A DNA stretch of 32,294 nucleotides from Candidatus Bathyarchaeota archaeon. GTDB lineage: Archaea > Thermoproteota > Bathyarchaeia > Bathyarchaeales > DTEX01. This document shows, piece by piece, positions 9,796 through 17,308 of this stretch. The DNA is taken from positions 1-32,294 of the forward strand of contig JAGTQD010000010.1 of assembly GCA_018396405.1 (NCBI GenBank), written 5' to 3'. The notes below the pieces were generated by a model that searched no databases, had not been told where the DNA came from, and saw nothing but the letters and a program-made list of their open reading frames with translations. Both the position numbers and the translations under genes were made by a program. Numbering within the stretch: position 1 is the first letter of the stretch; each line of letters opens with the position of its first letter.

Positions 9796-9807
9796 AAATA
9801 TTTAATT
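9796..9807 (+). promoter_or_regulatory. TATA-like box A for the permuted tRNA transcript
   Basis: aaaatatttaatt-type AT-rich motif about 25-40 nt upstream of the BHB-forming leader. Confidence 0.4.
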
Positions 9808-9835
9808 GATGCTCATAATCATATTTTAACTTGGG

Positions 9836-9948
9836 GCTCCAGCGCAGAAAGCCGGAGGTCGGGGGTTCAAATCCCCCCGGGTCCGCCAACAAACGTATTG
9901 GACCCGTGGTCTAGCCAGGATTATGACGTCGGCCTGCGGAGCTGGGGC
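9836..9948 (+). other. Bulge-helix-bulge (hBHBh') splicing motif formed by the outer flanks of the permuted tRNA
   Basis: Outer helix 9836-9843 GCTCCAGC : 9941-9948 GCTGGGGC (8 bp, one G.U); bulge GGA 9938-9940; central helix CTGC 9934-9937 : GCAG 9844-9847; bulge AAA 9848-9850; then the anticodon stem. Predicted cuts GG^A (after 9939) and AA^A (after 9849). Confidence 0.92.
9850..9939 (+). tRNA. Circularly permuted tRNA-Arg(GCG): 3' half (9850-9885 + encoded CCA 9886-9888), 11-nt linker (9889-9899), 5' half (9900-9939)
   Basis: Acceptor GGACCCG(9900-9906):CGGGTCC(9878-9884) 7/7 bp; T-arm GGGGG-TTCAAAT-CCCCC; anticodon stem TCGGC(9929-9933):GCCGG(9851-9855); D-arm GTCT-AGCCAGGATTA-TGAC; T8/A14, G15/C48, G18G19/T55C56, A20 and G73 present; spliced loop CTGCGGA gives anticodon GCG. 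Confidence 0.93.
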
Positions 9949-10104
9949 ATAATTTATTTTAAGCCTTTAAATTTTCATTTTAAAAAAGCAAAGTTTATTA
10001 GTTTCTCCTTTATTGTTTATTTTGCCATAGAGTTGCTGGGGTATGATGGAACCTTTATATAATTCTAGTTTTAAGCTTATGGTCTTAGGAGGGATATAAA
10101 GGGG

Positions 10105-13477: not shown

Positions 13478-16400
13478 ATGGCGGTTGCCGAAGAGATATA
13501 TAAGATAATAGATCATATTAAATTCGGGATTCTCTCACCACAAGAAATCAGAAGGCTATCTGTGGTAGAGATACAAACGGCTGACACTTATGATGAAGAT
13601 GGGGCGCCAATATCTTCAGGCCTTATGGATAGCCGCCTCGGGGTCCTAGAGCCAGGACAAAGATGCAAAACATGTGGCAATACATCAGTTAATTGCCCGG
13701 GGCACTTTGGCCACATAGAACTCGCGGTGCCAGTAATCCATGTAGAATTCGCTGAGATTATCTATAATCTCTTACAGGTTATCTGCAGAAATTGTGGTCG
13801 CCTATTACTTCCGGATAAAACGATAAAATCTTTGAGAGCTAGGATGGAGAGGCTTAAAAAGATTCTTGGGAATGTGCCATCAGCCTTCTATAATAGAGTT
13901 TTTGAGGAGGCTAAAAAGAACCGTGAGTGTCCGTGGTGCGGCGTAAAGCAATATAAGATAGAGTACACAAAACCAACAATATTCCATGAGTACATGGAGG
14001 AGGGTGGGTCGCAGCGATTAAACGCGAGCGTTATACGAGAGAGGTTTGAGAGGATCCCAGATGAAGACCTTGAATTACTTGGTTTTGATCCAAAAAGCGC
14101 CCGTCCTGAATGGATGATTATACAAGTGTTGCCAGTCCCGCCAGTATATGTTAGGCCATCTATAACCCTTGAATCTGGAATAAGATCTGAAGATGATTTA
14201 ACACATAAGCTTGTCGACATAATAAGGATAAATCAGAGATTAAAGGAGAATATCGAGGCTGGAGCACCTACCCTAATAATACAGGATTTATCTGAGCTTC
14301 TGGAGTATCACGTCACAACATACTTTAATAATGAGGCATCGGGTATACCACCCTCGAGGCATCGCTCTGGGAGAGCTCTCAAGACATTATCCCAGCGCCT
14401 TAAGGGTAAGGAGGGTAGATTCAGGGGCAATCTTTCAGGTAAGAGGGTTGACTTTTCAGCCCGCACAGTTATCAGCCCAGACTCAAACTTAGACATAAAT
14501 GAGGTTGGCGTCCCGATAAGCATTGCCATGAGATTAACTGTTCCAGAAAAAGTTACACCATGGAATATTGAGAGTCTCCGCCAGCTTGTGAGAAACGGGC
14601 CGAACGTTTATCCCGGAGCCCAATATATTATTAGGCCTGATGGTAAGCGTATTAGGCTTGAATTCGTTAGTGATAGAGAGAAGCTTGCTGAGGCACTTGA
14701 GCCGGGCTTTATTGTTGAGAGGCATCTCCGGGATGGCGATATAGTTATATTTAATAGGCAGCCCTCCCTCCACAGAATGTCTATAATGGCCCATTATGTT
14801 AAGGTGCTCCCCGGTAAGACTTTTAGGCTCCACTTATGTGTCTGTCCGCCATACAATGCGGACTTCGATGGAGATGAGATGAACCTTCATGTCCCACAAA
14901 GCGAGGAGGCCCAAACGGAAGCCCGTCTGTTAATGCAGGTTCAGGATCATATACTTTCACCAAGATTCGGTGGTCCTATAATAGGCGCTATAAGAGATTT
15001 TATTACGGCAGCCTATCTTCTAACAAGAAAAGATACTCTCCTAAATAAGAAAGAAGTCTGCGAATTATTAACTGCAGCTGGTTATGATGGACCTCTCCCC
15101 GAGCCCGCTATTAAAAAGCCTGAGCCCCTATGGACTGGAAAGCAAATATTTAGTTTATTCCTGCCAAAAGACTTTAATTATACCATTAAATCAAGCGTCT
15201 GTAGAAATTGTAATGTGTGTTTGAAGGAGCAGTGTCCATATGATGCTTATGTTGTCATTAAAGACGGTGTCCTGATCAAGGGTGTTATTGACAAGAACTC
15301 CATTGGCGCTGAAAAGTCTGAAAGCGTGTTACATAGGATAATAAAGGATTATGGCACGGAGACTGGCAGAAAATTCCTTAATCAGCTATGCCGCCTTCTT
15401 AATGCATTCATAACCATGCGGGGCTTCACATATTCAATTGATGAGCTTGATCTATCGGCTGAGGCTAAAAAGAAAATACGCCAAATAATAAGGAATTCTG
15501 AGAGGAAGATAGAGTCGCTGGTCAAAGCTTTACGCGAAGGGACCCTTGAGAGACTTCCAGGCCAAACTCTTGAGGACTCCTTTGAGCTCTACGTGATGAA
15601 TGAGCTTGCCGAGGCTAGAGAAAAAGCCGGGAAAATTGCTGAAGAGGATCTCAGTATGGAGAATTCTGGCATAATTATGACAAAAACAGGTGCTCGGGGG
15701 ACAACCTTAAATATTGGTCAGATGACTGCCATGCTTGGGCAGCAGTCTGTTAGGGGAAAGCGTATTATACGTGGATACATGGAGAGAGCCCTACCGCACT
15801 TCATGCTCGGGGATCCGGCGCCTAAGGCTAGAGGCTTCGTATACTCATCTTATAGGGATGGTTTAGATCCAATAGAGTTCTTCTTCCACGCAATGGGTGG
15901 GCGTGAAGGTCTAGTAGATACGGCTGTGAGAACCCAGCAGAGTGGTTACATGCAGAGGAGGTTGATTAATGCTCTTGAGCACCTACGCGTTGAATATGAT
16001 GGAACTGTGAGAAATCCTCTGGGTGAAATAATCCAGTTCGTTTACGGTGAAGACGGTGTAGACCCATCTAAGAGCGACCATGGAAAGGCCGTAAATATTA
16101 GTAGGCTTATTGAACAGGTTAGACTCATGGTTGAGGCGGGTGAGCCAGCCCCAAGAGAATATATAGAAGAACAGGTGAATAAAATCAAGGGTGAGCTCAC
16201 ACCGCTACTTACACGTGAGCTTATGGAGGGGCTCCTAACCTCTAATCTAAGTAAGGAGGGCGTAGACCTAGCTGTTAATTTAGCCGTGAAGCGATATAAG
16301 AAGGCGCTGGTTGAACCCGGAGAGGCCGTTGGGATCGTGGCAGCTCAATCTATTGGCGAACCCGGCACGCAGATGACTCTTAGAACGTTCCACTATGCCG

Positions 16401-17308
16401 GTGTTAGAGAGCAGAATGTAACCCTCGGTCTACCACGGCTAATTGAAATTGTTGACGCTAGGAGAGAGCCCTCAACACCAGTGATGACAATTTATCTCGA
16501 TGAGGAGCATAAGAGGAGCCGGGAGAAGGCGATGGAGGTTGCCCAAAACATTCTGTATACAACCATTGGAGATATTTCGGATGAGACTTATATAGACCCA
16601 GAGACTGGCAGCATAATAGTTAAGCTGAATAAGCGGAGTATGAATGAGCGCGGCATAACTTTGGAGTTTCTGAGTAAAATAGTTAATATTCCAAACTGCT
16701 CGGTAAGATTTGAGGAAGATAACATGATTGTTGAGCCTAAGAAGAAAATGGATACGAAAAAGCTATTGAGTAAGGTTATATCTTATCATGTGAAGGGTAT
16801 ACCTGGTATAAAGAGGGTTTATGTGTCTGAAGAGAATGGAGAGTGGATTATAAGGACTGATGGATCTAAGCTATCCAAGGTTTTAGAGGTTATTGGTGTC
16901 GATCCAACGAGAACAACGACAAATAATATTCATGAGATAGAGAAGACGCTGGGTATAGAAGCTGCTAGAAACGCTATTATTGAGGAGGCTATGAGCGTCT
17001 TACATGAACAGGGATTAGATGTTGACATTAGGCATGTAATGCTTGTGGCTGATGTAATGACCGTTACTGGCACTGTTAGGCAGATAGGCCGCCATGGAGT
17101 TAGCGGCGAGAAACCAAGCGTTTTAGCCAGAGCAGCCTTTGAGATAACAGTCCCAAATATTGTTGAGGCAGCCATTAGGGGCGAGGTCGATCCTCTCAAG
17201 GGCGTGGCTGAGAACGTCATTGTTGGCCAAATAATACCCGTTGGCACGGGAATAGTGGATATTTATGTAACAGCACCCTTTGGTTATGGGGGCGGGTCGG
17301 AGAGTTGA
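13478..17308 (+). CDS. rpoA: DNA-directed RNA polymerase subunit A, fused A'+A''
   Basis: 1276 aa single ORF containing NADFDGDEMNLHVPQ (A') and EAVGIVAAQSIGEPGTQMTLRTFHYAG...IRGEVDPLKGVAENVIVGQIIPVGTG (A''). Confidence 0.98.
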   Translation: MAVAEEIYKIIDHIKFGILSPQEIRRLSVVEIQTADTYDEDGAPISSGLMDSRLGVLEPGQRCKTCGNTSVNCPGHFGHIELAVPVIHVEFAEIIYNLLQVICRNCGRLLLPDKTIKSLRARMERLKKILGNVPSAFYNRVFEEAKKNRECPWCGVKQYKIEYTKPTIFHEYMEEGGSQRLNASVIRERFERIPDEDLELLGFDPKSARPEWMIIQVLPVPPVYVRPSITLESGIRSEDDLTHKLVDIIRINQRLKENIEAGAPTLIIQDLSELLEYHVTTYFNNEASGIPPSRHRSGRALKTLSQRLKGKEGRFRGNLSGKRVDFSARTVISPDSNLDINEVGVPISIAMRLTVPEKVTPWNIESLRQLVRNGPNVYPGAQYIIRPDGKRIRLEFVSDREKLAEALEPGFIVERHLRDGDIVIFNRQPSLHRMSIMAHYVKVLPGKTFRLHLCVCPPYNADFDGDEMNLHVPQSEEAQTEARLLMQVQDHILSPRFGGPIIGAIRDFITAAYLLTRKDTLLNKKEVCELLTAAGYDGPLPEPAIKKPEPLWTGKQIFSLFLPKDFNYTIKSSVCRNCNVCLKEQCPYDAYVVIKDGVLIKGVIDKNSIGAEKSESVLHRIIKDYGTETGRKFLNQLCRLLNAFITMRGFTYSIDELDLSAEAKKKIRQIIRNSERKIESLVKALREGTLERLPGQTLEDSFELYVMNELAEAREKAGKIAEEDLSMENSGIIMTKTGARGTTLNIGQMTAMLGQQSVRGKRIIRGYMERALPHFMLGDPAPKARGFVYSSYRDGLDPIEFFFHAMGGREGLVDTAVRTQQSGYMQRRLINALEHLRVEYDGTVRNPLGEIIQFVYGEDGVDPSKSDHGKAVNISRLIEQVRLMVEAGEPAPREYIEEQVNKIKGELTPLLTRELMEGLLTSNLSKEGVDLAVNLAVKRYKKALVEPGEAVGIVAAQSIGEPGTQMTLRTFHYAGVREQNVTLGLPRLIEIVDARREPSTPVMTIYLDEEHKRSREKAMEVAQNILYTTIGDISDETYIDPETGSIIVKLNKRSMNERGITLEFLSKIVNIPNCSVRFEEDNMIVEPKKKMDTKKLLSKVISYHVKGIPGIKRVYVSEENGEWIIRTDGSKLSKVLEVIGVDPTRTTTNNIHEIEKTLGIEAARNAIIEEAMSVLHEQGLDVDIRHVMLVADVMTVTGTVRQIGRHGVSGEKPSVLARAAFEITVPNIVEAAIRGEVDPLKGVAENVIVGQIIPVGTGIVDIYVTAPFGYGGGSES

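What the first reader, a model, noticed from the sequence alone, without database searches (positions are those of the whole stretch)
9836..9948. Textbook bulge-helix-bulge assembled from the two outer ends of the permuted gene
The 5' flank (9836-9850) and 3' flank (9934-9948) are separated by the entire tRNA yet pair as 8 bp (GCTCCAGC:GCTGGGGC) / 3-nt bulge GGA / 4 bp (CTGC:GCAG) / 3-nt bulge AAA / anticodon stem. This is the canonical substrate of archaeal tRNA-splicing endonuclease (cut between second and third bulge nucleotides), placing the junction at the canonical 37/38 position and yielding loop CTGCGGA. Such geometry is very unlikely by chance and argues the gene is functional.
Basis: partly seen in the sequence, partly recalled or inferred. 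Interest (0 to 1): 0.85.

Follow-up and report, generated by a model that had tools for sequence, protein, structure and literature searches.

The report
Inside-out arginine tRNA gene in Bathyarchaeia
In a group of uncultured archaea the only gene found for one arginine tRNA is written back to front (second half first), and its two outer ends fold into the exact shape that the tRNA-splicing enzyme cuts; 13 species keep that shape with paired mutations, so the gene is almost certainly working and can show how such scrambled genes come and go.

Summary
The flanks 9836-9850 and 9934-9948 pair as 8 bp / bulge / 4 bp / bulge / anticodon stem, a strict bulge-helix-bulge (BHB) around a circularly permuted tRNA-Arg(GCG). 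Joining 9939 to 9850 gives a 79-nt tRNA that ARAGORN calls Arg(GCG); standard tools miss the genomic gene. The host is a Bathyarchaeia MAG. The same permuted gene is in 13 of 21 genomes of its family. Permuted and colinear Arg(GCG) genes never co-occur in the family, and the genome encodes a two-subunit splicing endonuclease, RtcB and archease. Junction 37/38 ('type II') is known from algae; reported archaeal cases (Thermofilum pendens) are at 59/60. No other type-II candidate appeared in 260 Bathyarchaeia genomes or 401 drawn from the phylum (CCA-encoding genes only). One congener (G008) has a colinear gene at the same syntenic site while nesting among permuted species, suggesting reversion or replacement in place (AU p=0.002 combined, 0.14 on RNA-polymerase genes alone). 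No RNA data exist; expression and cleavage are inferred. New variant of a known kind.

The parts
9836..9843 (+). outer helix h', 5' strand (GCTCCAGC), in the leader of the precursor
   Evidence: pairs with 9941-9948; covariation in 13 genomes
9844..9847 (+). central 4-bp helix, leader strand (GCAG)
   Evidence: pairs with nt 32-35; fully paired (G.U allowed) in 12 of 13 loci
9848..9850 (+). first 3-nt bulge AAA; predicted cut between 9849 and 9850, so A9850 = nt 38
   Evidence: AAA or AGA in all 13 loci; cut inferred from the known BHB rule
9850..9888 (+). 3' half of tRNA-Arg (nt 38-76, encoded CCA at 9886-9888)
9889..9899 (+). 11-nt intervening sequence ACAAACGTATT between CCA and nt 1; 9-34 nt in the 13 loci
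9900..9939 (+). 5' half of tRNA-Arg (nt 1-37); anticodon GCG at 9936-9938
9934..9937 (+). central 4-bp helix, tRNA strand (CTGC, nt 32-35)
9938..9940 (+). second 3-nt bulge GGA; predicted cut between 9939 (nt 37) and 9940
   Evidence: invariant in all 13 loci
9941..9948 (+). outer helix h', 3' strand (GCTGGGGC), in the trailer
9796..9835 (+). A/T-rich stretch (AAAATATTTAATT) where most of the 13 loci have a TTTATA-like box about 43-58 nt before nt 38; likely single promoter for the whole precursor
   Evidence: inference, box weak in this genome

Best explanation
It is a working, circularly permuted tRNA-Arg(GCG) gene of the anticodon-loop kind. One transcript carries leader, 3' half with CCA, 11-nt spacer, 5' half and trailer. 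Leader and trailer pair into a strict hBHBh' motif. The two-subunit archaeal splicing endonuclease cuts after 9849 and after 9939; RtcB with archease joins nt 37 (9939) to nt 38 (9850), giving a 90-nt circle; RNase P cuts before G9900 and a 3' activity removes the spacer after CCA 9888, giving a mature tRNA for CGU/CGC codons. Shown here: anatomy, exact BHB geometry, conservation with compensation, presence of endonuclease alpha and beta, RtcB and archease, no second Arg(GCG) gene found. Inferred: transcription, cleavage, ligation, circle, end trimming, charging.
For: BHB in sequence and MFE. Rejoined molecule is a complete cloverleaf called Arg(GCG) in all 13 genomes. Acceptor, T and anticodon stems 100% paired across halves; outer helix 99% paired with three pairs changed on both sides; the covariation score beats all 500 shuffles and all slid controls. 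No other tRNA with a GCG anticodon found in G000; CGU/CGC make 73 of 417 arginine codons in 15 window ORFs, including 19 in rpoB and 20 in rpoA. Across the family, permuted and colinear Arg(GCG) genes never co-occur. Endonuclease alpha keeps the Tyr/His/Lys triad and aligns with crenarchaeal alpha chains (3p1z, E 7e-48), beta has lost the His; RtcB; archease beside the beta gene.
Against: No RNA data. All genomes are drafts; absence of a second Arg(GCG) gene rests on a 95.6% complete assembly with 4.3% contamination. G018 has an A.C at the outermost pair of the 4-bp helix and G005 an A.C in the outer helix. T13.T22 mismatch in the D stem of G000 (a position that is often unpaired).
Confidence: 0.93

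Rival explanations
1. [quoted passage not shown]
For: The same BHB would serve trans-splicing; Aeropyrum pernix Asp(GUC) has adjacent halves on separate transcripts (PMC3218864).
Against: The spacer is only 9-34 nt, too short for an archaeal promoter, and the order 3'-half then 5'-half on one strand is fixed in all 13 loci, with a TATA-like box only upstream.
Confidence: 0.04
2. Decayed tRNA remnants or an integration scar that happens to pair; not functional.
For: tRNA genes are common integration and rearrangement sites; the gene is invisible to ARAGORN and Rfam.
Against: Mature sequence nearly invariant while flanks and spacer diverge; compensatory changes; sole Arg(GCG) found; orthologue at a conserved locus.
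Confidence: 0.02
3. Assembly or binning artefact.
For: All genomes are MAGs; contig ends and contamination exist.
Confidence: 0.01

Closest known systems
Type II permuted tRNA genes (junction 37/38) of Cyanidioschyzon merolae, prasinophyte green algae and the Bigelowiella natans nucleomorph (Soma 2007; Maruyama 2010; review PMC3978253)
   Same: 3' half before 5' half, short spacer, junction 37/38, terminal BHB, circular intermediate as the processing route
   Different: Junctions of green algae and the nucleomorph are relaxed (hBH); here strict hBHBh' with a conserved 8-10 bp outer helix; CCA is encoded; host is an archaeon with an archaeal endonuclease
[quoted passage not shown]
   Same: Archaeal, permuted, encoded CCA, single upstream promoter, BHB at the ends
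   Different: Junction 59/60 in the T loop, plus an extra intron at 37/38; known from one species; here junction 37/38, no intron, isotype Arg(GCG), 13 species
Split tRNAs of Nanoarchaeum, Caldivirga and Desulfurococcales
   Same: Halves brought together by complementary flanks into an hBHBh' motif, often at 37/38
   Different: Two transcripts in trans; here one permuted transcript

Membership tests
circularly permuted tRNA genes | 3' half encoded upstream of 5' half on the same strand, short spacer | tested here: met
circularly permuted tRNA genes | halves rejoin into a full cloverleaf of one isotype | tested here: met
   ARAGORN Arg(gcg) for all 13 rejoined sequences; stems 100% paired except the last D-stem pair
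circularly permuted tRNA genes | precursor termini form a BHB at the junction | tested here: met
circularly permuted tRNA genes | circular RNA intermediate and mature tRNA present in the cell | not testable with these tools
   no RNA-seq or culture
type II (37/38) subgroup | junction between nt 37 and 38 | tested here: met
   bulges AA|A and GG|A place 38 and 37
Thermofilum-type (type IV, 59/60) archaeal permuted tRNA | junction at 59/60 in the T loop | tested here: not met
   T arm is intact within the 3' half
(alpha beta)2 archaeal splicing endonuclease in the host | catalytic alpha with Tyr/His/Lys plus a beta subunit lacking the His | tested here: met
   assembly as a heterotetramer not tested
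split tRNA | halves on separate transcripts | tested here: inconclusive
   9-34 nt spacer leaves no room for a second promoter; no transcript data

The most novel reading that the evidence does not exclude
Permuted and colinear forms of one tRNA gene interconvert in place: the Arg(GCG) gene was permuted in an ancestor of this genus and then became colinear again at the same locus in G008, beside the splicing-endonuclease beta gene. This would be the first seen return from a permuted to a normal tRNA gene and would show that permutation is not a one-way ratchet.
Probability: 0.4. Interest if true: 0.8.

Novelty: new variant of a known kind. Interest (0 to 1): 0.66.

Why it matters
Archaeal permuted tRNAs have rested on two genes of one species, both at 59/60. 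A strict, covarying 37/38 permuted gene in 13 Bathyarchaeia species brings the algal 'type II' form into archaea, gives a natural comparative set for what the endonuclease requires, and offers permuted and colinear orthologues at one syntenic site, so that origin (tandem duplication, replacement, reversion) becomes testable. It also explains a tRNA that standard annotation reports as missing.

Tried and rejected
The first genome contigs pattern scan returned nothing, but my pattern was one base short in the acceptor stem and would have missed known positives; it is not evidence of absence. Searches for Arg(GCG) in G013, G014, G017 and G020 found neither form; with 66-95% completeness I draw no conclusion, though G014 (95%) is a real puzzle. 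Generic pattern hits outside the family were checked for acceptor complementarity and rejected as tandem tRNAs or chance (2-6 mismatches of 7). That pattern needs an encoded CCA and a spacer up to about 33 nt, so permuted genes without CCA would be missed. Considered a split tRNA, a pseudogene and an assembly artefact; all rejected as above.

Full report
OBSERVATION. 9836-9843 GCTCCAGC pairs with 9941-9948 GCTGGGGC (one U.G); 9844-9847 GCAG pairs with 9934-9937 CTGC; the bulges are AAA 9848-9850 and GGA 9938-9940; the next helix is the anticodon stem. The unconstrained minimum-energy fold of 9831-9953 contains this motif (-55.6 kcal/mol, z -2.67). In 400,000 simulated flank pairs of the same dinucleotide make-up, both helices together at the required spacing never appeared. 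ARAGORN and Rfam report no tRNA in the window.

WHAT IT IS. Cutting each bulge between its second and third base (the established BHB rule) and joining 9939 to 9850 gives GGACCCG...CTGCGGA...CCA, 79 nt, which ARAGORN calls tRNA-Arg(gcg). The 3' half is 9850-9888 with encoded CCA, the spacer 9889-9899, the 5' half 9900-9939.

RELATIVES. A DNA search found the same permuted gene in 13 genomes: G000-G007, G009, G010 of the window's genus, and G016, G018, G019 of another genus of the family. Among 21 family genomes, four have a colinear intron-free Arg(GCG) gene (G008, G011, G012, G015) and in four neither form was found (G013, G014, G017, G020). No genome has both. A generic pattern for a CCA-encoding 3' half followed by a 5' half found, in all 260 Bathyarchaeia genomes held and in 401 genomes drawn from the phylum, only this gene once acceptor complementarity was required.

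COVARIATION. On 12 distinct precursors the stated structure has 98.7% standard pairs; the outer 8-bp helix is 99% paired, none of its pairs is invariant, three show changes on both sides (GC/AU, CG/UA, AU/GC), five change on one side to G.U or U.G; cells changed on both sides number 14 against 3.8 in shuffles, with 0 of 500 shuffles as high; slid controls collapse to 34-49% paired. Shuffling leaders against trailers among genomes reached the observed pairing in 7 of 20,000. Bulges are AAA/AGA and an invariant GGA. Exceptions: G005 has one A.C in the outer helix, G018 an A.C at the outermost pair of the central helix, and G001/G003/G016 a G.U in the central helix. Relatedness of the sequences inflates such counts, but the changes occur at different pairs in different lineages.

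MACHINERY AND NEED. All 21 relatives searched carry the splicing-endonuclease domain, 18 of them in two copies. In G000 one subunit (C32) aligns with crenarchaeal alpha chains (3p1z, E 7e-48) and keeps Tyr, His and Lys; the other (C20) lacks the His: the pattern of the (alpha beta)2 enzymes (classification in PMC12397907). RtcB is present and archease lies near the beta gene. In 15 window ORFs CGU+CGC make 73 of 417 arginine codons, and no other GCG-anticodon tRNA was found in G000. The host's other Arg tRNA genes are themselves rich in introns.

EVOLUTION. In G001, G002, G003, G006, G007, G009 and G010 the permuted gene lies next to a divergent small gene (76-84% identical to that of G008), then an M48-like peptidase gene and the endonuclease beta gene (an MtnA-like gene beyond it where the contig reaches); in G005 the same genes are there without the small one. 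In G008 the colinear gene sits at exactly this place and orientation. So the switch happened in place. A tree of RpoB, RpoA, both endonuclease subunits, the peptidase and MtnA nests G008 with G006 inside the permuted genus (99.5/99); making the permuted genomes a clade without G008 is rejected with all genes (AU 0.002) and with the non-polymerase genes (0.038) but not with the polymerase genes alone (0.14). Reversion or replacement in G008 is therefore favoured, not proved. Its mature sequence is closer to the colinear gene of G012 (3 differences) than to G006's permuted one (5), which hints at replacement by a colinear copy rather than a literal un-permuting. The two permuted genera are not sisters, so loss in between, transfer, or two origins are all open. 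An origin by tandem duplication of an intron-bearing gene followed by loss of the outer halves would explain why leader plus trailer look like a split intron; no intron-bearing Arg(GCG) at 37/38 was seen.

KNOWN. The review of permuted tRNAs (PMC3978253) defines type II (37/38) from C. merolae, green algae and a nucleomorph, and states that archaeal cases are at 59/60; those are the two T. pendens genes (PMC3218864). Searches of the held open-access library found no archaeal 37/38 permuted tRNA and none in Bathyarchaeia. bioRxiv and most subscription papers are not held, so a prior report cannot be excluded.

Noticed in passing
G000:C20:17440-21590 (L090) and L075-L081, L086, L087: The splicing-endonuclease beta gene sits with archease (in G000) and an MtnA-like gene, and in nine genomes of the genus lies within about 6 kb of the tRNA-Arg(GCG) gene; in G000 the two are on different contigs.
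   Followed up: partly
G014 (whole genome, 95% complete): Neither a permuted nor a colinear Arg(GCG) gene was found although its closest relative G019 has the permuted one; could be an assembly gap or a further disrupted form.
   Followed up: partly
G000:C43:16300-16750 (L292), G000:C23 (L293), L201-L226: Several Arg tRNA genes of this family carry two or more introns, including in the D arm and anticodon stem, so that ARAGORN mis-assigns their isotype.
   Followed up: no
13478-17308: RNA polymerase RpoA is one unsplit gene of 1276 aa (Rpb1 domains 1-5), directly after rpoB.
   Followed up: no
L006 (G018) around 1501-1610: A.C mismatch at the outermost pair of the central 4-bp helix: a natural relaxed BHB at a permuted junction.
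   Followed up: no
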